Positions 1 to 31,073 of a stretch of DNA of 31,073 bases are shown here, in pieces. Source of the DNA: a virus. Numbering within the stretch: position 1 is the stretch's first letter; every line of letters begins with the position of its first letter. The stretch spans positions 1-31,073 of the IMG/VR virus record IMGVR_UViG_3300013233_000264. One strand, given 5' to 3'. The position numbers and the translations under genes were made by a program. The notes below the pieces were generated by a model. It saw nothing but the letters and a program-made list of their open reading frames with translations, was not told where the DNA came from and made no database searches.

Positions 1-65
1 GGTATGGGGATGGGGATGGGTATGGGGATGGGGGTGGGTATGGGGATGGGTATGGGTCTGGGTCT
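1..65 (+). repeat. GGGNNT hexamer array, left part
   Basis: The unit GGG followed by TAT, GAT, GGT or TCT is repeated about eleven times and decays into GGAGAC just before ninG. It continues the array at 30939-31073. The first 8 bases repeat the last 8 of the window. GGG runs every 6 bases on the coding strand could form G-quadruplexes in DNA or mRNA. Confidence 0.95.
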
Positions 66-83
66 GGAGACTGGGATGGCTAA
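3..83 (+). CDS. Gly-X repeat protein, C-terminal part (continues from 30915 across the junction)
   Basis: In the frame beginning at base 3, the hexamer array reads as alternating glycine and Tyr, Asp, Ser or Gly residues. It leaves the repeat with Gly-Asp-Trp-Asp-Gly and stops at TAA 81-83. The start codon is not here. The same reading frame begins at the GTG at 30915 at the other end of the window, and the two halves join in frame once the 8-bp terminal overlap is collapsed. The stop overlaps the ninG start (ATG 76-78) by 8 bases, so the two genes are probably translationally coupled. The function is unknown. The composition is that of a disordered, low-complexity chain. Confidence 0.6.
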   Translation, partial: YGDGDGYGDGGGYGDGYGSGSGDWDG

Positions 84-609
84 AAAATGCAGGCAGTGCG
101 GCACGAAATTTGAGGCGAGAAATTCGCTGCACGTTGCCTGCTCTCCACGCTGCGCCATTGATCTGGCGCAGGCCAAGGCCGACAAGAAGCGCCGTGGCGA
201 GACGCTGGCAATGAAACGCAGGCTCAACGACAACGACCGGCAGTATCAGCTCAAACAGGCGCAGGCGACGTTCAATCGCTACATTAGACTGAGAGACGAG
301 GGGTTGCCGTGCATCAGTTGCCAGCGGATGCACTCGGGGCAGATCCATGCTGGGCATTATCGCAGTGTTGGAGCGCATCCAGAGTTGCGGTTCAATCCGG
401 ACAACTGTCACGCTCAATGTATGCCGTGCAACACGCATCTGAGCGGCAATATCGTGAATTATCGGATTAATCTCATTGATAAAATCGGGATTGAGCGAGT
501 TGATGCAGTCGAAAAAAGGGAGCGAACTGAGAAATTAACGATTGATGACATCAAGGCCATCAAAGCCAAATTCAAAACACTATGCAAAAAACTGGAGAGT
601 GAAAAATGA
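76..609 (+). CDS. ninG: NinG (Rap) recombination protein
   Basis: NinG/Rap is a lambdoid recombination protein that acts on branched DNA together with phage annealing systems. The 177-residue product has a Cys pair near the start (C5, C8) with further cysteines at C22 and C26. It then has an HNH-like zinc core: C79-x2-C82, H86, H91, H94, N110, C111, C115, C118 and N119, followed by a Lys-rich C-terminus. I chose ATG 76 because GGAG (66-69) lies 6 bases upstream and residue 1 matches the family start (MAKKC). An ATG-only extension to base 4 merely reads the hexamer array. The stop overlaps the next start as ATGA. The gene belongs to the rightward operon with the DUF6948-like gene and the Gly-X gene, apart from the ERF/Exo/SSB genes on the other strand. 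Confidence 0.93.
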   Translation: MAKKCRQCGTKFEARNSLHVACSPRCAIDLAQAKADKKRRGETLAMKRRLNDNDRQYQLKQAQATFNRYIRLRDEGLPCISCQRMHSGQIHAGHYRSVGAHPELRFNPDNCHAQCMPCNTHLSGNIVNYRINLIDKIGIERVDAVEKRERTEKLTIDDIKAIKAKFKTLCKKLESEK

Positions 610-1737: not shown

Positions 1738-4700
1738 CCGCATCTATAAAAACAGGCTATCTGAGCAAGCCCATCATCATCGAAAGCGGCATCTTCACGG
1801 GCAATGGCAACGGTGTAGGATCGAACAACATCATCCAGATCGCCGTCACGAATCTGACGGCAACCCTTGCCGTGACGCTCTGCAACGCAAATCAGATCAC
1901 CAGCTAGAATCTCTCCGGCCTCATCGCACACGTTGATGAGGCCATCACCAAGCGCATTCACAAACGCCCTCTCCATGTCCATTGTGAACGTGAGTTGCTG
2001 ATTAGCGGTAAGTGAGTTTAGCGCAGGATCGGAGTTATACGGCAGATCGGAAAACGGCACCGATCCCGTGAATACCCCGATTGCATTCTGCTGGTATCGA
2101 CCAAATCCGCTGACCGCTATTGCGTCAGATACTCCATGAGTTGCGACAATTCGCAGCTCGCAGAGTATGTCGCCAATTTCGGGGTGAAGGTCGCCTGGAA
2201 TAATGGTTGGGTGAGCGCCGGTAAATGGGAGGTATGCTCCCGATTGGGCGTAGAATGCCGCACCTCCAACCGCGCCTGATGACCTCACCCCCACCCCGCC
2301 AGCACCAGCGCCATAGAAATCAGCGCCGTAGGATGCGCCAGACCCACTGACACCCGCAAACCCGCCGCTACCGGCAACACCGGTGCCGATGCCGCTTGAA
2401 GAGACCCCGCTGATTGCGTTATTTTGGCTTGAGTTTGCGTAGATAGCTGGATTTGCTGCACTGTCAGACACTGCATAGATCGAGTATCCCGACAACGTCG
2501 ATGCGTGAACCGCTGCGCCAGAATTTGAAGCAAACTCACCGCCCACACCGCCAGCAGATGCCCCGCCGTAGATCGCCGTTTTTGAGTCGATGCTGGTGGC
2601 TGAAACTATCGAGTAATCTGTTGCGCCTGGAGCCTGGCTCACTCCTGCTGTGAATCGAGTCGCGCCGCCAACGGATACGGTTAACTCGCCAGAAACGGGA
2701 TCAACAAACACCCTCTGACCCGTTGCCGCCACCCCAGTATCAGCGCCAAGCGCCACGTTTGTTCCGGTCACATCTGCTCCGGCCTGCGCGGGTTCTTTTG
2801 CTGCTAATGCGGGGGCTGTCCAGTCAGTGTCCCTGTTTGAATCACCGGACGGCAAAGAAAATGCGCTTGGCGATGCGGAATTGCCAACCTGCTTTTCCAG
2901 CATGATGCCGTCCCAGTAGTAAATATTTCCAGCAATATCGCTATCAATGCGAACTAGGCACTGACCGCTCGCTGATGATGTCAGGTCAACAGCACTAGAG
3001 ATTGTTTTCCACCCCGCAGAATCTGTTGTATCAGTCAGTCCTAAATGAAAAACGCCGTCACTCGTCTTGACATACATTTGCACCTGAGCTGTCGCTGGAG
3101 AAAAAGTAACAGCATCAATTGCCTTTACTCTAGCCGACACAATCCATTTTGAGTTTGGATCAATGTTGATATTGTAATCAACTGATGAAGTGGCGAGAAC
3201 AACCCAAGCATCACCTCCATTTGCATCAATACGAAGAGAGTTTGAGCCGTTGAAGAATCCAACCCCCGTTGCTTGTAGCGGTGCCGCATTGGCCGACCGC
3301 CCCATCACTGGGAGTCCGTTCGGAGATTGGAAAATCGAGTATTGCTGCGGGATCAGATTTACAGATGACCCTGCAATATTGTCGATTGTGACATCAGAGC
3401 CAGCAACAGCAGGCTTTAGTGAGTCCAGTGTTTGCCCGCTTGAATACGGTGTTTCTGCTGCCGTTTGAATTTTGCGGATTTTGATATAGTCAACATTCCC
3501 ATATCCGGCAGTGTTGTTGTAATTCAAGATCATAAGCGGGCGAATTTTCACGACATTTGGGTGGAATTTGCCGGGCGATTGAATCGTCCCCTGCCCACTA
3601 CTCCCCGTAGTTGCCCCGCGCCCTCTGGAATAACCAACAAACTCTTTCCAGCCCACTCCGGTAACATTTGCCGCGCAGTGGTAATAATGAGAGCTGGCAA
3701 TATTATCACCGGCATAGTTAACAAGGTTGTCGGCAGAATCATATCCAGCCCACCCAAAAAATACCGCCCCAACATTATCGAGATAAGCCCGCGCGGTCAT
3801 CTCAATCAAATCGGTGTCGTTTAGCGGGATAAATTCACTGTGAACCATCCAGACCAGACCGCTAATTCCCTGCAAAACCCCGCCACCCGAATAATTCCCA
3901 TAAAAATGTTTTAGGATTCCAACATTTGGAGCAAGAGGGAGCCATTGTGATAGCGAGCTGGGGTCTGGAAAAAACAGCTCCTTGTTTTTTGCGTTCGTAA
4001 CTGCGCCAGTATCAACACCGGAGACATTGCTGCGCCAATCTGCGCCAACAGTCGCACTGTCTGCCGGAATGCCTGCGGATGCCTTGTCTAGCTGCCCCCA
4101 CTGCACTGCCGCCGGAGCGCTGGCAAGTGTGTGTGCAATCTGGCTCCATGCGCTGTGGCCGTCAACGCCACGACTGCTGATCGCTCGAATACGAATATCG
4201 TAGGCCACACCCTGAGACGCGGTGAAGGCTGCGGCAGTGGATGCAGGATCGCTCATGAGTGAGACCGTATGCCACGAACTCACCGCACTCTGTTTGCTCT
4301 GAATCTCATAGCCTGAGCAGTGCGGATCTGTGATCTCCTGCCAGCCCATTTCAATCTGCTGAAGGGATTGCCCCTGATTCGCAGGCAATGCAGGCTCAAG
4401 AGTGCCGTCTGCTGCTGTGAATGCTGCTGGTGGTATTAATTTATGCACGGGGTTTGCGTCCTGTTGAGCGGTTTCTTGGGGTGGGATGTATTGGATCGCA
4501 ACGACAGAGCCGGTTCGATCCTCGCCAGACGTTCCACGCTGCTCTGAAACGGGGTTGTACGACGATCTGGAGTACTGCACTCCAAGGCCGCTTGGGATGT
4601 ATTCTGAAACTGAGGAGTGGACGGGCGACAATCCAGTAAATGCCTCTACGTTGCCAATGATCGTTGGCGGTGTGTGGTTGCCGTCGATGCAGATCAAAGC

Positions 4701-25988: not shown

Positions 25989-26310
25989 TGCAAGCCCTCC
26001 GCAAAATATTTGAGTAAAATTCCAGCTTTTCAGCATCAAAGTAGCCGAAATCCTCGCGTTTTAGGCATTCCAGCAGATCAGAAATCCGGTTTGCGACCGT
26101 TTTAATAAACTCAAACCTAATCGCAGGCTCGCCAGCATCTGCGGGCGACATTGATCTAGCAGTTGATACTGAAACCAGCATCATCCCAAGTTTTTTAACA
26201 TCGGACACAACCCAATCATTCAGAGTTCGCAGAGGAACCCCTGTTATTCTACTTACCGATGCAGCAGACCCCGCGTGATGCGCGGAGCATAGTTCAGCTA
26301 GTGTTGTCAT
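25981..26310 (-). CDS. Hypothetical HTH-like protein, 109 aa
   Basis: The N-terminus has a helix-turn-helix-like stretch, SAASVSRITGVPLRTLNDWV (about 15-34), preceded by LAELCSAHH. The rest is helical and charged. The start has GGAG about 12 bases upstream and the end overlaps the ERF start by 8 bases. I do not recognise the family; DNA binding is inference. Confidence 0.65.
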   Translation of the reverse strand: MTTLAELCSAHHAGSAASVSRITGVPLRTLNDWVVSDVKKLGMMLVSVSTARSMSPADAGEPAIRFEFIKTVANRISDLLECLKREDFGYFDAEKLEFYSNILRRACNV

Positions 26311-26330
26311 TATTTTTCACTCCAAAGTTG

Positions 26331-26768
26331 TTAGAGATACAGATCCATTTCGTTGTCGCTCATTTCGACAATCCCGCAAGCAGTGCCGACAATTGCAGAG
26401 AAGTTGTCACCGAAAGACCCTTTTTCATAATCAAAGCATGTTCCGTCAGACTCAAGAAACCCTGCATCCATCCCCTGAATGCAGTGGGTCGTCCAATCCC
26501 TGCACGAGCTACATTGACTGCAGACAAAATTTGATTTGCTGCTGATCACGACACCAGCAGCATCAACATCATCAGACCATCCGTTTTTTTCAGACAAAGC
26601 CACTTGATCTGCTGTGCTAAAAACAACTTCAACAAAAGCAGGCTGTGAAATCAGAGCCTTATATTCTTTCCATGCTTGCTTCAGCGCAGAACTCAGTGAA
26701 AGCGCATCGTTTTTAACAAAGCCCCACGCCGTCGTCATGATCCATTTCATGTCGTTAATTGTTTTCAT
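26331..26768 (-). CDS. Hypothetical protein, 145 aa
   Basis: The product is the first gene after promoter cassette P2. Residues 1-40 (MKTINDMKWIMTTAWGFVKN, then SSALKQAWKEYK) resemble a short motif found at the start of several phage and plasmid proteins. A Cys cluster (VCSQCSSCRDWTTHC) near 82-96 may bind metal. The tail is acidic (MSDNEMDLYL). I chose ATG 26768 because the sequence before it is promoter and leader, which recurs upstream of two other genes. The function is unknown. Confidence 0.7.
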   Translation of the reverse strand: MKTINDMKWIMTTAWGFVKNDALSLSSALKQAWKEYKALISQPAFVEVVFSTADQVALSEKNGWSDDVDAAGVVISSKSNFVCSQCSSCRDWTTHCIQGMDAGFLESDGTCFDYEKGSFGDNFSAIVGTACGIVEMSDNEMDLYL

Positions 26769-26850
26769 TTTCCTAACCCTCTGTGTGTTTGTGTGTATGG
26801 GTCTATTATAGTGCGGTGGGCGCATTAGCGCAAGGGTTTATTTAAACTAT
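26765..26850 (-). promoter_or_regulatory. Promoter-leader cassette P2
   Basis: Leftward TTGCGC (complement of 26828-26833), 17 bases, TATAAT (complement of 26805-26810), then the CA-rich leader and AGAGGGTTAGGAAAATG. It is nearly identical to P1 over about 85 bases, including the first codons ATGAAAAC. It starts just after the DnaC-like gene and drives the 145-aa protein and probably ERF, Exo and SSB. Confidence 0.88.
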
Positions 26851-26852
26851 TT

Positions 26853-27536
26853 TCAAAAAACCGACTTGCCGCGCAACGATTCCCAACTAAACTCGATCAC
26901 CGACCGTCCAGAACAGCAGCGATCAAACGCACGATCACCTACAGCCACCCGTAATTTCCCGTGATCCAGATTCGTAATCAGAATGCAGGGCTTCATAGCT
27001 GCATCACGATCACCGATGATGCGCGTGATTATCCGGCTCTCGAACTCGCTGCCAGCCGTCACACCTATTTCGTCGATGATCAGCAAATCCGGCTCAAGGT
27101 ATTTCTCAATCACCGCCCCACCATTCGGTCTCAACGAATCAAACAACTCATCAGACGCAATCATTTTTGCAGATCGACCCGACACCACCGCTTTCCGTGC
27201 CATCCATCCAGCAATTGAGGATTTTCCTGTACCCACGCCACCTTTGAGTGTGCAGTGAATGCCGCGCTCAAAAATGGTATTCAGGTTTTCTCCCCACGCC
27301 GTGATTCGATCCATCACTGATTTCTGATCCGGTGTCTGTGATTCGAGAGTTGACGGAGACAGGCCATTGCAACGCTCTGGAATGCCGATGGCCGCCACCT
27401 GCTGTGCTGTCCATTGTTTCGCCCATTCGCGCCTGGCAGACTCGTTATGAGCCTCCATTTCGTCGATTGAGGCCGCGACAGTGCCGGTTGGCGCGTGTTG
27501 CGCCAATGCTTTGAGTGATTGATTGATGTCAGTCAT
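26853..27536 (-). CDS. DnaC-like helicase loader ATPase, 227 aa
   Basis: AAA+ ATPases of this type load the host replicative helicase at the phage origin, the job of lambda P. Walker A is GGVGTGKSS (99-107) and Walker B LLIIDE (151-156), followed by a likely sensor (ILITNLD) and an arginine-rich end (AFDRCCSGRSVIEF). I chose ATG 27536 (MTDINQSL), which overlaps the previous stop by a few bases. It pairs with the O-like initiator upstream. Confidence 0.88.
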   Translation of the reverse strand: MTDINQSLKALAQHAPTGTVAASIDEMEAHNESARREWAKQWTAQQVAAIGIPERCNGLSPSTLESQTPDQKSVMDRITAWGENLNTIFERGIHCTLKGGVGTGKSSIAGWMARKAVVSGRSAKMIASDELFDSLRPNGGAVIEKYLEPDLLIIDEIGVTAGSEFESRIITRIIGDRDAAMKPCILITNLDHGKLRVAVGDRAFDRCCSGRSVIEFSWESLRGKSVF

Positions 27537-27849
27537 CGTAACCAGCAGCCTCGATTGCATCCGCCCTCTGCTGCTCGAATATCTCAGCAGCGATTGGCGT
27601 TACAGCCTGCACCATAATCTCACGAATACCATCAATTGCCGCCAATTTTTCGGCATCGTCACCAGAGTTGACGGCCTCAAATAACAGCGCGTCAAATTTT
27701 GGTAACAGCTCGTCAGAGTCGGCTACCGACTCCATCACAGACTCATCACTGCCGCTCACCAATTCCTCGGCAATAGCCTCGATTGCCTCGTCGCGTGAAT
27801 CCAGTGAATCAGCAGCAGCGGCTGACAGTTGATTGCCGCTTGTTGTCAT
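27529..27849 (-). CDS. Small acidic protein, 106 aa
   Basis: The product is Ala/Glu/Asp-rich, with a helical core (AIDGIREIMVQAVTPIAAEI) and an acidic Ser-rich stretch (SGSDESVMESVADSDELL). The ATG at 27849 has GGAGG upstream and overlaps the preceding gene stop as ATGA. Its own stop overlaps the DnaC-like start. I do not recognise it; an acidic partner of the loader is possible. Confidence 0.65.
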   Translation of the reverse strand: MTTSGNQLSAAAADSLDSRDEAIEAIAEELVSGSDESVMESVADSDELLPKFDALLFEAVNSGDDAEKLAAIDGIREIMVQAVTPIAAEIFEQQRADAIEAAGYDD

Positions 27850-28037
27850 AAATCCTCCAAATCTTCTTGAGAAAATGAATTTGGATTCGGCGTGCGACAC
27901 AAATCCTCCTGGACCCTATCTCTCTCAGCAAGCGCGGCATCAAGATCGGCCTGAGCTTTTGCCAATCTGGTGTTGGCGGCGCTTAACGCCGCGCGCCTAT
28001 GTTGCCGAATTTTCAAAATAAACTCTCTGTCTGTCAT
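27846..28037 (-). CDS. Small coiled-coil protein, 63 aa
   Basis: The product is a single predicted coiled coil (LSAANTRLAKAQADLDAALA then ERDRVQEDL) with an acidic end (FSQEDLEDL). I chose ATG 28037 because it directly follows promoter cassette P3 and has GAGGCG upstream. The stop overlaps the next start as ATGA. The function is unknown; it is the first gene of the P3 unit that ends with the helicase loader. Confidence 0.65.
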   Translation of the reverse strand: MTDREFILKIRQHRRAALSAANTRLAKAQADLDAALAERDRVQEDLCRTPNPNSFSQEDLEDL

Positions 28038-28112
28038 CGCCTCAACCCTCTGTGTGTTTGTGTGTATGGGTCTATTATAGTGCGGTTGGCGCATTGGTGC
28101 AACAGGTTTTTA
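28038..28112 (-). promoter_or_regulatory. Promoter-leader cassette P3
   Basis: Leftward TTGCAC (complement of 28097-28102), 17 bases, TATAAT (complement of 28074-28079), then the same CA-rich leader and AGAGGGTT as in P1 and P2. It differs at two bases of the -35 region and lacks the upstream AAATAAACCC. It starts just after the Cys-rich protein gene and drives the 63-aa, 106-aa and DnaC-like genes. Confidence 0.86.
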
Positions 28113-28382
28113 TGGATTATCTCCAAAATCACGCCACTCTAAATCCCACTGACTTGCAACGTGAGTGCCATCACCAGTGCAGACTAGGCTGCTATGCGGC
28201 TCCTCGACCGCTGGGCATAGACACACACCACAAAATGATGCTTTATCCACATCAAAATCACGGCATGAGTGAGACAGAAGTACTATGCAGCCACGCTCAA
28301 TGCAGTTTCCGAAATAGCTGTATCGAGTAGACATCTCCAAGTTCTCGCAGTTTTTGCATATTTTTTCGCAAGGTGTCGGCAT
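28110..28382 (-). CDS. Cys-rich putative metal-binding protein, 90 aa
   Basis: Ten or so cysteines occur in pairs: CEKICKNC at 5-12, CIERGC at 27-32, HSCRDF, then CGVCLC at 51-56 and VCTGDG. This suggests zinc or iron-sulphur binding. The ATG shares one base with the O-like stop (TGATG). It is the last gene before P3. Family not recognised. Confidence 0.68.
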   Translation of the reverse strand: MPTPCEKICKNCENLEMSTRYSYFGNCIERGCIVLLSHSCRDFDVDKASFCGVCLCPAVEEPHSSLVCTGDGTHVASQWDLEWRDFGDNP

Positions 28383-29191
28383 CAGAAAGCGTCTCCAGGT
28401 CGTGGGGTTTGGTCGAACTCGTTGTGTACCACTTCATCCAATCCAGTGAAATTTGATGGCCTAGATTGCCTCGCCTTTGTGCCATTTAGTCCGCGATAGT
28501 TTCTGTACCACTCCACGTTGAATGCAATCCAGTTTCCCGCTTCCCAAACATCGAAGCAGTCTTGAATGTCGTGTCCAGCCTCCTTTGCTGCAACCAGTTC
28601 TTTACCTGATAGGTCCATTGCTCGTTGAGTCATGCGTCCGCCTTTTTTCCGCCTGTTCTGCATAATCTCTTCCATCTGTTCGTCATCAGGCAGTGCAGGC
28701 CAACTGCTGTAATTTAGTTTCTTCCAAGCCAGATTTTTGGGTTTTGGCGCTTGCGCCTTCTTTTTCTCTTCTGGTTTAGTTATATCTTCTATTTTAGTAA
28801 TATCTTCTCCTTTAATATCGGTATCGGTTTCCACACCTGTGGGTTTCCGTATGTGTGGGTTTCTGCAACTGTGGTCTTCGCTATCCGTGGTGTGTGGCAG
28901 TGCATAGATGTGGTAATCGCTACCGATAAACTGCCCCGCATCGTTCTTGCGGCGCTTTACTTGGTACAGGCCGGACTCTCTCAGCTCTCGCATTGCAGAC
29001 AAGTATCGTGTGCGACCGATTGAAAAGTGGCTGCGGATTTGCGTCTCTCTGAATACCCAATTCTCAGGCAGGCTTTGCAGGTAGACCCATATTGCCAGCG
29101 CCTCTGGATTTTTAATCGACTGAATAACGTCACGCGAATTCATAACGAATGGGATGCCAGCTTGGTGCTTAACCAGTTTGTCTATGGCCAT
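28382..29191 (-). CDS. O-like replication initiator, 269 aa
   Basis: The N-terminal 90 residues form a winged-helix replication domain (IPFVMNSRDVIQSIKNPEAL, ETQIRSHFSIGRTRYLSAMR, ELRESGLYQVKRR), as in lambda O and related initiators. A low-complexity middle (about 100-150) coincides with five 16-bp DNA iterons and an AT-rich stretch. The C-terminal half probably binds the loader. I chose ATG 29191, with GGAAG about 9 bases upstream; a TTG two codons earlier is less likely. It binds the origin and recruits the DnaC-like loader and host helicase. Confidence 0.85.
   Translation of the reverse strand: MAIDKLVKHQAGIPFVMNSRDVIQSIKNPEALAIWVYLQSLPENWVFRETQIRSHFSIGRTRYLSAMRELRESGLYQVKRRKNDAGQFIGSDYHIYALPHTTDSEDHSCRNPHIRKPTGVETDTDIKGEDITKIEDITKPEEKKKAQAPKPKNLAWKKLNYSSWPALPDDEQMEEIMQNRRKKGGRMTQRAMDLSGKELVAAKEAGHDIQDCFDVWEAGNWIAFNVEWYRNYRGLNGTKARQSRPSNFTGLDEVVHNEFDQTPRPGDAF
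28757..28823. other. AT-rich stretch beside the iterons (likely unwinding element)
   Basis: An AT-rich run within the O-like gene contains two ATATCTTCT repeats. It lies directly next to the iterons, as the unwinding element does in lambda ori. Confidence 0.6.
28824..28903. repeat. Five 16-bp iterons: candidate replication origin
   Basis: Units begin at 28824, 28840, 28856, 28872 and 28888, each exactly 16 bases apart. The best two share GTGGGTTTCYG; the others are degenerate (GGTTTCC, GTGGTCTTCG, GTGGTGTG). Because 16 is not a multiple of 3, the pattern is not a by-product of protein repeats. Position inside the O-like gene matches lambda ori. Confidence 0.78.
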
Positions 29192-29218
29192 TGTCAAAAC
29201 TTCCTTTGCTGCTATAAT
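29191..29218 (+). promoter_or_regulatory. Rightward promoter at the O-like gene start
   Basis: TTGTCA (29191-29196), 16 bases, TATAAT (29213-29218). It points away from the O-like gene, against the early transcript, and meets a hairpin at 29239-29259. The layout resembles lambda's OOP promoter. Confidence 0.6.
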
Positions 29219-29233
29219 GCAGCGTGTGTTTGA

Positions 29234-29341
29234 TTATTTGGCCGCCCGTTTAGCGGCCATTTTGTTGTTGCTGATCCCGTGTTTTTTCTGGATCATTTTT
29301 AGATTTGCTGGTGTGTAGCCCAGCTCGTAGTTGTTTTTCAT
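29234..29341 (-). CDS. 35-aa protein similar to the Cro-like N-terminus
   Basis: The frame starts at ATG 29341 (GAGG 7 bases upstream) and reads MKNNYELGYTPANLKMIQKK then HGISNNKMAAKRAAK. It aligns with residues 19-46 of the Cro-like protein (LGYTP.NL......GI....A.K) but stops before the recognition helix would be complete. It lies between the Rha-type and O-like genes. It may be a relic or a small regulator. Confidence 0.55.
   Translation of the reverse strand: MKNNYELGYTPANLKMIQKKHGISNNKMAAKRAAK
29239..29263. terminator. Hairpin overlapping the end of the 35-aa gene
   Basis: TGGCCGC, 7-base loop, GCGGCCA, followed rightward by TTTTGTT. It would end a short rightward RNA from the promoter at 29191-29218 about 40 bases long. 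The leftward side lacks a T run. Confidence 0.5.
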
Positions 29342-29358
29342 TGTCATTCCTCGGATTG

Positions 29359-29386
29359 TTGGTATACTGCGCGGAGTTGCTATATT
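29359..29386 (+). promoter_or_regulatory. Possible rightward extended -10 promoter
   Basis: TTGGTA, 16 bases, TATATT with TG two bases before (TGCTATATT). The -10 lies in the loop of the inverted repeat at 29370-29398. A transcript would be about 45 bases and end at the terminator at 29410-29437. Speculative. Confidence 0.4.
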
Positions 29387-29398
29387 TTCCTCTCCGCG
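29370..29398. repeat. Inverted repeat CGCGGAG / CTCCGCG
   Basis: A perfect 7-bp inverted repeat (29370-29376 and 29392-29398) with a 15-base spacer. It may be an operator or form a hairpin in leftward mRNA between the Rha-type and 35-aa genes. Confidence 0.7.
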
Positions 29399-29409
29399 AC
29401 TGTGTGTTT

Positions 29410-29437
29410 TAGCTCACTCCAAGTGAGCTATTTTTTT
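29410..29437 (+). terminator. Strong rightward Rho-independent terminator
   Basis: TAGCTCACT, loop CCA, AGTGAGCTA and then TTTTTTT: a 9-bp perfect stem with a T7 tail. It is oriented rightward, yet both flanking genes are leftward. The left half of the T run and stem overlap the last codons and stop of the Rha-type gene. It implies a short rightward RNA. Confidence 0.85.
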
Positions 29438-30213
29438 GCCTGCGATTCGATCAACTCCAACAGCTCTGGGAATTTATCGACGTAGTAGCGCGGATGGGTT
29501 TGGTTTGGGTTTTGAGGGCTGGTTTCGTTTCGGCCAAATCGCAACCCTGAATCAGTCAGTGATTTAAACCGCTTCACACCCCCTCGTGCCGCTCTGCGCG
29601 ATAACTCGGTTAATACGCCTCGTTGTATCAATATCCGGTTTGCGGCCTGTGCAGACAATGTAGAGCCGTTTTCGCGCAGCAGATCACCAATGGCTCTTGT
29701 CAAGCCCTCATGCTCCGAATAATCGGGGAGCAGGTTTGTATTGAGTCCGTGATTTTTGGCCACCGTGCCGAGCATTCGGATTTTGCTGGTTTGGCTCATT
29801 CGCAACATGTCGGCGGCAGCATTGGCGAACATCAGCTCACTCTCAAGGGGCGCTGCTGGTGGCGCGGCAATCTGTTGATCTTGCTCTAATTCGTCGAGTC
29901 GAATTGAAACACGGTATCGAAGCGGTGCGCTCCACCCCATCGCTAGTGTCATTGTCGCGTGTTTGTCGAGAACGTACATTTTACGATGGCGATTATCGGC
30001 GCTGGTGTAGATTGATTCGGTTACCGGAGCACAACCCAAATGTGGGCTATGCTCTAATTTTGGTGACGAACTCAAATTTGAGTTGTGCTCAATCAGCTCA
30101 GGTATTGCGCGAATCATTTTCTCAATGTCTCGCAGAACATTGGCGTGGCGTTTGCCGGAGAATTCCGCTAGTTCGAGACTGGTCATGCTGATTACTCTCT
30201 GTAGTGCGCTCAT
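29428..30213 (-). CDS. Rha-type phage regulatory protein, 261 aa
   Basis: The N-terminal region matches the Rha family (MTSLELAEFSGKRHANVLRD followed by IEKMI, then KMYVLDKHATMTLAMGW). The C-terminal half resembles a DNA-binding domain common in antirepressors (TLSAQAANRILIQRGVLTEL, then GLRFGRNETSPQNPNQTHPR and DKFPELLELI). It probably modulates early regulation. The start overlaps the Cro-like stop as ATGA, with GAGGGG upstream. Confidence 0.82.
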   Translation of the reverse strand: MSALQRVISMTSLELAEFSGKRHANVLRDIEKMIRAIPELIEHNSNLSSSPKLEHSPHLGCAPVTESIYTSADNRHRKMYVLDKHATMTLAMGWSAPLRYRVSIRLDELEQDQQIAAPPAAPLESELMFANAAADMLRMSQTSKIRMLGTVAKNHGLNTNLLPDYSEHEGLTRAIGDLLRENGSTLSAQAANRILIQRGVLTELSRRAARGGVKRFKSLTDSGLRFGRNETSPQNPNQTHPRYYVDKFPELLELIESQAKK

Positions 30214-30476
30214 TTCAATTTCCCCTCTGTTAATTCAATTCGCATCTGTAAGAATTTCTGCCATTTTTCGGCGCTCATCGTGCAGTGCAGTGCAGTGCCA
30301 ATCGGCGCTCTCCATGCCGTCACGGCGTTGGGAGCAACCCCTGTTTTTTTGGCCACCATCCTGCGGGTGATACCTAGCTCGGTCATTAGGATGTTAAGGT
30401 TTTTTGGCGTGTAACCAAGATCAAGTTTTTTGACAGCAGACAGAGCAGACACTGTTGCCCATGTTTTTCCCACCAT
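30210..30476 (-). CDS. Cro-like HTH repressor, 88 aa
   Basis: The product has a helix-turn-helix, LGITRRMVAKKTGVAPNAVT, at about 34-53 followed by AWRAPIG, in the style of short Cro/XRE regulators. It opens the leftward early operon, the position of cro. The ATG has GGAG about 8 bases upstream. It lies next to divergent promoters, which are its likely targets. No longer CI-type gene is visible nearby. Confidence 0.78.
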   Translation of the reverse strand: MVGKTWATVSALSAVKKLDLGYTPKNLNILMTELGITRRMVAKKTGVAPNAVTAWRAPIGTALHCTMSAEKWQKFLQMRIELTEGKLK

Positions 30477-30495
30477 TTTTATTTCTCCAATAGTG

Positions 30496-30548
30496 TTGAT
30501 GTTTCGGTGAGGTCATTGTATTATAGTTACTCAATTAACGCAAACACA
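30496..30548. promoter_or_regulatory. Divergent overlapping promoters
   Basis: Rightward: TTGATG (30496-30501), 17 bases, TATTAT (30519-30524), for the DUF6948-like operon. Leftward: TGTGTT (complement 30543-30548), 17 bases, TATAAT (complement 30520-30525), for the Cro-like operon. The -10 elements overlap, so the two directions compete and a regulator bound here would affect both. Confidence 0.65.
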
Positions 30549-30562
30549 TAGAGAGCGAGATT

Positions 30563-30928
30563 ATGAATATTGATGAAATGACGCTTGGCGATTTGAAAAA
30601 AATAGCGTCAATGTTTGGCAGCACCAGCACTGCAAAAGCGGTTCCTGATTTTTCTGGGAAATACGTCATTGTGCGAACTCGAAACGAGGGCGTGAATGCT
30701 GGATTAGTTGTTGAAAATGGTGTTGGATTTGTGCATTTAAGTAACGCGCGAAGGCTCTGGAGCATTGTTCCTCCGTCTGATTGCGAAAAATGGTACGAGG
30801 GCGTTGCAAAATCAGGATTGGGAGAGGGATCTAAAACGTCGATTGAGTCTGAAAAACTGATCGTTGAGGACTACTCGATCACCGTGTGCTCTGGTGTTTC
30901 AGAGGAGAATATCCGTGGATTCAAATAA
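30563..30928 (+). CDS. DUF6948-like protein, 121 aa
   Basis: After a short helical start (MNIDEMTLGDLKKIASMFG), the body matches the DUF6948 pattern: KYVIVRTRNEGVNAGLVVEN, LSNARRLWSI, and GLGEGSKTSIESEKLIVEDY then SITVC. The role is unknown; the family is common in phages. The gene starts the rightward operon with the Gly-X protein and ninG. It overlaps the Gly-X GTG by 14 bases. Confidence 0.78.
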   Translation: MNIDEMTLGDLKKIASMFGSTSTAKAVPDFSGKYVIVRTRNEGVNAGLVVENGVGFVHLSNARRLWSIVPPSDCEKWYEGVAKSGLGEGSKTSIESEKLIVEDYSITVCSGVSEENIRGFK

Positions 30929-31073
30929 ATCTATTTCTGGGTATGGGTATGGGTATGGGTCTGGGTCTGGGTCTGGGGATGGGGATGGGTCTGGGTCTGG
31001 GGATGGGTCTGGGGATGGGTATGGGTATGGGCCTGGGTATGGGTCTGGGTCTGGGTCTGGGGATGGGTATGGG
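30915..31073 (+). CDS. Gly-X repeat protein, N-terminal part
   Basis: GTG 30915-30917 has AGAGGAG 7 bases upstream, one of the best ribosome sites in the window. The protein starts MDSNKSIS and then alternates Gly with Tyr, Ser, Asp or Pro for 22 units to the window end, continuing at base 3 after the overlap is collapsed (total 77 residues in this assembly). Every variable codon ends in T (TAT, TCT, GAT, CCT, GGT). Such Gly/Tyr/Ser chains are typically disordered and can self-associate. The function is unknown. Confidence 0.68.
   Translation, partial: MDSNKSISGYGYGYGSGSGSGDGDGSGSGDGSGDGYGYGPGYGSGSGSGDGYG
30939..31073 (+). repeat. GGGNNT hexamer array, right part
   Basis: Twenty-three GGG triplets exactly 6 bases apart, separated by TAT, TCT, GAT or CCT. 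It continues at the left end of the window. Changes by whole units keep the reading frame. Confidence 0.97.

What the first reader, a model, noticed from the sequence alone, without database searches (positions are those of the whole stretch)
28757..28903. Origin inside the O-like gene: five 16-bp iterons with an AT-rich flank
The exact 16-bp period cannot come from the codon frame. With the adjacent AT-rich stretch, it matches the layout of lambda ori, though unit length and sequence differ.
Basis: partly seen in the sequence, partly recalled or inferred. Interest (0 to 1): 0.7.

Follow-up and report, generated by a model that had tools for sequence, protein, structure and literature searches.

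The report
Lambda-like replication origin inside initiator gene
This phage appears to keep its DNA start site for replication inside the gene for the protein that recognises it, as phage lambda does, but with its own repeat sequence and a differently built protein.

Summary
Inside the O-like gene (28382-29191, minus strand) there are 16-bp direct repeats at 28826, 28842 and 28858, a degenerate fourth at 28874, and a partial one at 28822 if the unit is read as TGTGGGTTTC. The claimed fifth copy at 28890 does not match. The period is not a codon effect: 0 of 5000 synonymous recodings reach it. The flank at 28757-28815 holds the most AT-rich 50 bp and the least stable 40-60 bp of all 31 kb. The array encodes the start of a disordered linker after a winged-helix domain, followed by the AT tract and a C-terminal domain shared with other phage O-like initiators: the order seen in lambda. 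Initiators sharing that C-domain usually carry their own non-triplet arrays at the same place (28 of 42 and 35 of 37 clusters, against 2 of 113 and 3 of 105 control genes). The cumulative GC-skew minimum falls at 28837, but this is weaker evidence than it looks. Most likely a working iteron origin, a variant of the lambda kind. Initiator binding is inferred, not shown.

The parts
28382..29191 (-). O-like replication initiator, 269 aa from ATG 29191: winged-helix N-domain (about residues 20-97), disordered linker (98-168), C-domain (from about 160)
   Evidence: phrog_678 O-like 1.2e-9 and phrog_186 DnaD-like 4e-9; AF2 secondary structure H29-39, H49-56, H60-73, E76-82, E88-97 with block-mean pLDDT 51-84 there and low elsewhere
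28822..28889 (.). iteron array, 16-bp direct repeats; strong copies 28826-28841, 28842-28857, 28858-28873, weak copy 28874-28889, partial core 28822-28831; encodes residues 101-124, at the start of the linker
28757..28815 (.). AT-rich tract, candidate unwinding element, with its own 18-bp repeats (28767, 28785, 28803); encodes residues 126-145
   Evidence: AT-richest 50-mer in the window; least stable 40-60 bp; AT and 18-bp repeat above synonymous expectation
28816..28841 (.). left arm of a 26-nt imperfect inverted repeat, overlapping the first iteron
   Evidence: 21 of 26 complementary; 0 of 200 synonymous recodings as good
28903..28928 (.). right arm of the inverted repeat; 28903-28918 is an inverted iteron-like site (11 of 16, a level 25 sites in the window reach)
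29191..29259 (+). pO/oop-like unit 1: promoter TTGTCA-16-TATAAT (29191-29218, TG before the -10), terminator 29239-29259; convergent with the early operon; its -35 starts on the O-like start codon
   Evidence: RNA fold z -2.56
29341..29430 (+). pO/oop-like unit 2: promoter TTGTCA-16-TATACT (29341-29368, TG), terminator 29410-29430, overlapping the 3' end of the Rha/Ant-like gene
   Evidence: RNA fold z -5.02
26853..27560 (-). DnaC-like helicase loader (in the place of lambda P, not adjacent to the initiator)
   Evidence: phrog_50 4.2e-26; IstB_IS21 4.7e-9
30210..30476 (-). small HTH repressor (Cro-like position), first gene of the leftward early operon
   Evidence: phrog_7950 transcriptional repressor 5e-12
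29428..30213 (-). Rha/antirepressor-like gene, in the position of lambda cII
   Evidence: Phage_pRha 7e-13; phrog_10324 Ant 2.8e-16

Best explanation
This is the phage's replication origin, placed inside the gene of its own initiator. Shown from sequence: a non-codon 16-bp repeat array, beside it the least stable DNA of the window, both in the linker-coding part of an O-like initiator gene, within an early operon that also encodes a DnaC-like loader, ERF and YqaJ recombination proteins and SSB. Inferred: the winged-helix N-domain binds the 16-bp units. Successive units lie about 1.5 helical turns apart (16/10.5), so neighbours face opposite sides and alternate units share a face. The nucleoprotein complex melts the AT tract, and the C-domain together with the DnaC-like loader delivers the host helicase. 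Also inferred: leftward early transcription passes through the origin and helps open it, and the two convergent pO-like promoters just upstream temper that transcription, as pO does in lambda.
For: Non-triplet array: 0 of 5000 recodings. AT tract first in the window for AT content (50 bp) and instability at 40-60 bp, and above synonymous expectation. Initiator and loader families. Array at the winged-helix/linker boundary. Lambda positive control with four annotated iterons in the middle of O. Comparative survey: initiators sharing the C-domain show non-triplet arrays in mid-gene at z of 5 or more in 28 of 42 clusters against 2 of 113 controls, and in 35 of 37 against 3 of 105. The contig closest in structural genes (L054/L055) carries a different initiator gene with its own 11-bp array inside it, 3525-3559. 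Cumulative GC-skew minimum at 28837; third-position skew arcs with the right boundary supported at 27652-28853.
Against: No binding, melting or replication data exist. The 16-bp unit itself is found in no relative: 33 loci matched its pattern in viral contigs, none with a convincing third unit. The skew signal is broad (four-fold sites allow 27180-29764) and does not repeat in the nearest contig, where the negative-to-positive switch is near 30528 while the array is near 3525. The second switch falls at the same scaffold/capsid boundary in both contigs, so it may be inherited with those genes rather than mark a terminus. Five N-domain relatives carry either 15-bp arrays, a triplet multiple (3 of 5), or none (2 of 5, which look identical). 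The AF2 model had no alignment and a mean pLDDT of 46.8.
Confidence: 0.86

Rival explanations
1. The repeats are slippage products tolerated in a disordered protein linker, without a role in replication.
For: The array lies in a linker predicted disordered; the AT tract encodes a six-residue peptide repeat (EDITKI, EDITKP).
Against: The period is not a codon multiple; synonymous recoding does not give it. In two other initiator lineages the 14-bp period recurs among the clusters scoring 4.5 or more: 24 of 33 and 29 of 35. Control genes mostly lack such arrays, though controls were not chosen for disordered linkers. AT content exceeds what the peptide requires.
Confidence: 0.07
2. The repeats bind the initiator for autoregulation of its own gene or operon, or for handcuffing, while replication starts elsewhere.
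For: Initiators of iteron plasmids also bind autoregulatory sites (recalled); candidate promoters of this region lie upstream, 29191-29368.
Against: The array is about 300 bp inside the gene, away from those promoters, and touches the least stable DNA of the window, which regulation would not need.
Confidence: 0.05
3. The array is a recognition site of another protein (packaging, partition or host nucleoid protein).
For: Short tandem arrays serve such roles elsewhere (recalled).
Against: Terminase genes lie at 19.5-21.4 kb, about 7 kb away; no partition gene was seen among the ORFs scanned with family models (10 others; not all ORFs were scanned).
Confidence: 0.02

Closest known systems
Phage lambda ori-lambda inside gene O (NC_001416, four annotated iterons 39034-39118)
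   Same: Iterons plus AT tract in mid-gene of the initiator, between N-domain and C-domain; same order along the gene; helicase loader in the same operon; Cro-like gene first in the operon; antisense pO/oop unit at the initiator's start (PMC5043065 and PMC3985674, passages read).
   Different: Lambda units are 18-19-bp imperfect inverted repeats with starts 20-24 bp apart, bound by dimers; here 16-bp direct repeats with no conserved dyad. N-domain not PF04492. Loader DnaC-like, not P-like. Two oop-like units instead of one.
Pseudoalteromonas phage vB_Pun_Y3 replication protein O (OR779980, L051)
   Same: Shares the C-domain (27.8% over residues 162-269); four 22-bp repeats in the linker followed by an AT-rich stretch.
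   Different: N-domain is Phage_rep_O; different iteron sequence and period; a gene annotated as replication protein P is adjacent.
Vibrio phage 1.052.A DUF1376 initiator (MG592433, L050) and its contig relatives
   Same: Shares the C-domain (35.6%); IstB-like ATP-binding protein next to it; repeats in the linker; an antisense promoter-terminator unit over the start codon.
   Different: N-domain DUF1376; 7/14-bp arrays.
Iteron plasmids (RepA/RepE/pi type)
   Same: Direct repeats next to an AT-rich region (review PMC5043065, passages read).
   Different: Plasmid iterons are generally in phase with the helix (same review), and usually outside the gene (recalled); here inside the gene and about 1.5 turns apart; only one DnaA-box match nearby, no more than chance.

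Membership tests
Lambda-type in-gene origin | Repeat array inside the initiator gene, not explained by codons | tested here: met
Lambda-type in-gene origin | AT-rich, easily melted tract next to the array on the C-domain side | tested here: met
Lambda-type in-gene origin | Each iteron an imperfect inverted repeat | tested here: not met
   Read by eye from the copies: copy 1 has a near dyad CCACAC/CTGTGG, copies 2 and 3 do not keep it; the only long inverted repeat spans the whole array
Lambda-type in-gene origin | Initiator binds the units and melts the AT tract | not testable with these tools
   needs protein and DNA
Phage_rep_O protein family (PF04492) | N-domain matches PF04492 | tested here: not met
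   no Pfam match above cut-off for the window protein; L051 does match
PHROG O-like initiators (phrog_678) | profile match | tested here: met
   1.2e-9 over residues 68-244, profile 105-300; lambda O matches the same profile at 1.7e-35 over its residues 1-172, profile 4-216, so the two overlap only in part
Lambda O/P replication module | P-like loader directly downstream | tested here: not met
   DnaC-like phrog_50 at 26853-27560 with small ORFs between; lambda P is phrog_109
Lambda pO/oop | antisense promoter-terminator unit at the start of the initiator gene | tested here: met
   two units; the lambda unit is found by a similar scan, at threshold 9 but not 10
Lambda pO/oop | transcript made, and promoter affects replication | not testable with these tools
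   needs RNA and mutants

The most novel reading that the evidence does not exclude
Phage initiators with this C-domain are portable one-gene replicons: the DNA-binding N-domain and its iterons travel together as a matched pair, while the C-domain, taken to recruit the helicase, stays. Phages would change replication specificity by swapping the N-domain-plus-iteron half of one gene. The convergent pO-type promoter over the start codon would be a recurrent companion reaching beyond lambdoid phages, here in a tandem pair.
Probability: 0.35. Interest if true: 0.55.

Novelty: new variant of a known kind. Interest (0 to 1): 0.42.

Why it matters
If the pairing of N-domain and repeat is a rule, origins of uncultivated phages can be read from the initiator gene alone. 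The tandem pO-like units offer a second case in which to test why lambda needs a promoter firing against its own replication operon.

Tried and rejected
Five iterons: rejected, 28890 does not match. Iteron sequence elsewhere: 33 loci matched the pattern (16 specified bases); none continued with a convincing third unit. Close relatives of the initiator: none in viral contigs, genome contigs, phage records by DNA, or the 20 records searched through handles. A scan with the helicase loader gave nothing. N-domain relatives gave five loci with 15-bp or no arrays. DnaA boxes: TTATCCACA at 28243, but 2 pattern matches in the window against 2.9 expected. Rfam: nothing in 26000-31073 and nothing in the lambda stretch either, so that test is uninformative for oop-like RNAs. 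Foldseek to PDB gave mostly winged-helix-type DNA-binding proteins with E of 6.7e-3 or more (CodY best; an 'initiator' entry 4pt7 at rank 24), consistent with a winged helix but no more. GC skew as a decisive test: weakened by the nearest contig. The 10-bp periods that sit in the N-domain part of some relatives were not counted as origin arrays; score only the middle of the gene.

Full report
What the window is. A 31,073-base virus record of a tailed phage: terminase, portal, major head protein and tape measure genes are recognised. Nearly all genes are on the minus strand. From 30476 leftward the early operon runs: small HTH repressor, Rha/antirepressor-like gene, O-like initiator, small ORFs, DnaC-like loader, ERF, YqaJ, SSB.

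The observation. The 16-bp repeats are real but fewer than claimed: three good copies (28826, 28842, 28858), a weak fourth (28874), and no fifth at 28890. Their period is the strongest non-triplet period of the 14 genes scanned, and recoding the same protein with the phage's own codon usage never gives it (0 of 5000; any non-triplet period 0 of 2000; codon permutation 0 of 2000). An inverted repeat of 21 of 26 bases encloses most of the array. The adjoining tract holds the most AT-rich 50 bp and the least stable 40, 50 and 60 bp of the window; at 100 bp it ranks third. Some of that is due to its Lys/Glu/Ile-rich peptide, but not all: 32 of 5000 recodings are as AT-rich over 28757-28815.

Where it lies in the protein. 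An AlphaFold2 model without alignment is poor overall (mean pLDDT 46.8) but gives a winged-helix pattern up to residue 97 and no regular structure from 98 to about 168. The array encodes residues 101-124, the AT tract residues 126-145. So the DNA element sits where the protein can tolerate it, between N-domain and C-domain. In lambda the annotated iterons occupy bases 349-433 of the 900-base O gene (from the coordinates).

Relatives. The initiator has no close relative in the collections searched. Its C-domain is shared, at 26-36% identity, with proteins of three marine-type phages whose N-domains differ. All three have repeats in the same linker with other units: 22 bp, 21 bp and 14 bp (the 21-bp one is a codon multiple and so ambiguous on its own). 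Two wider sets were scanned for non-triplet arrays in the middle of the gene. In relatives of the Vibrio phage 1.232.O protein (L052), 28 of 42 clusters reach z 5 against 2 of 113 clusters of neighbouring genes (78 of 80 loci gave a gene; the 80 are the best of 149 confirmed). In relatives of the DUF1376 protein (L050), 35 of 37 reach it against 3 of 105 (80 of 81 loci gave a gene; 80 of these 81 loci are the best of 598 confirmed matches, one comes). One search used the middle 35-65% of genes, another the middle 35-75%. Most of the scoring arrays in each set have a 14-bp period. Lambda O scores 5.06 and lambda P 3.03 on the same measure; the window scores 6.75.

Cassette exchange. The contig closest in structural genes (major head protein 94%, terminase 88%) has no match to the window's initiator. 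It has another gene (L054 3190-4152, phrog_23635 of unknown function, with only a weak phrog_678 match) with 3.2 copies of an 11-bp unit inside it. This is the strongest non-triplet signal among that contig's ORFs. The initiator and its candidate origin thus differ together while the head genes stay.

GC skew. The cumulative minimum is at 28837, inside the array. At third codon positions, which reduces the amino-acid effect, two arcs are clear although nearly all genes point the same way: 16.1-28.1 kb is C-rich on the plus strand, the rest G-rich (0 of 5000 block permutations as extreme; right boundary supported at 27652-28853, four-fold sites 27180-29764). This fits two forks leaving 28.8 kb. 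But the trough is flat, the nearest contig does not show the switch at its own array, and its other switch lies at the same scaffold/capsid boundary as in the window. Three further contigs gave no clear pattern. I count skew as mild support.

An addition to the finding. Two plus-strand promoter-like sites (11 and 10 of 12 matches, both with TG before the -10) are each followed within 60 bases by a good terminator, at 29191-29259 and 29341-29430. They are the only such units on either strand of the window (shuffles: mean 0.03, 0 of 100 with two). A similar scan finds one unit in the 2.5-kb lambda stretch, at pO/oop, but only at threshold 9. At threshold 9, 5 of 142 distinct initiator loci, lambda included, have such a unit at the initiator's start, against 4 of 1533 control placements; at threshold 10, 2 of 142 against 1 of 1533. 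Without lambda it is 4 of 141, Fisher p 0.0026. So most relatives show none by this scan. Control placements overlap and loci are related, so the p value is approximate. In lambda, pO works against pR transcription and its loss harms replication initiation (PMC3985674, abstract and passages read), while OOP RNA itself acts against cII (PMC12197685, passages read).

Mechanism, likelihood and naming. I give 0.86 to a working iteron origin read by the initiator's N-domain. It works like ori-lambda, but the protein is not a PF04492 member, the units are direct and not dyads, and the loader is not P-like. Hence a new variant of a known kind. In-gene origins are long known from lambda and Stx phages (PMC5043065, PMC7466680, passages read). 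I did not find a survey like the one above in the paper searches; only listings were seen for most papers, and most subscription journals are not held.

Noticed in passing
window 29191-29259 and 29341-29430, + strand: Two tandem promoter-terminator units antisense to the early operon just upstream of the initiator, resembling lambda pO/oop; unique in the window.
   Followed up: partly
L054 3190-4152 (array 3525-3559): In the contig closest by structural genes, an unrelated-looking initiator gene carries its own 11-bp in-gene array: a possible swap of initiator plus origin.
   Followed up: partly
window 1-79 and 30936-31073: Both contig ends are the same hexamer array (TGGGTA/TGGGTC/TGGGGA) on the same strand, coding a Gly-rich repeat in one frame; the genome may be circular and broken in this array.
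   Followed up: no
window 26775-26842 and 28044-28111: A 68-nt repeat, 90% identical, at the 5' ends of two early ORFs; it holds CTATTATAG, perhaps a repeated minus-strand promoter and leader.
   Followed up: no
window 16.1-17.2 kb: Third-position GC skew changes sign near the boundary of the major head gene and its upstream neighbour although gene direction does not change; the same boundary switches in the closest contig.
   Followed up: partly
window 4-609, + strand: NinG/Rap-like endonuclease (phrog_171, 3.7e-79), lambda-like, whose predicted start runs into the hexamer array.
   Followed up: no
L146-L225 (DUF1376 initiators): Dense 7/14-bp arrays (such as ACACATA, ACCCATT) in mid-gene in nearly all clusters: probable in-gene origins, not annotated in the L050 record.
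   Followed up: partly
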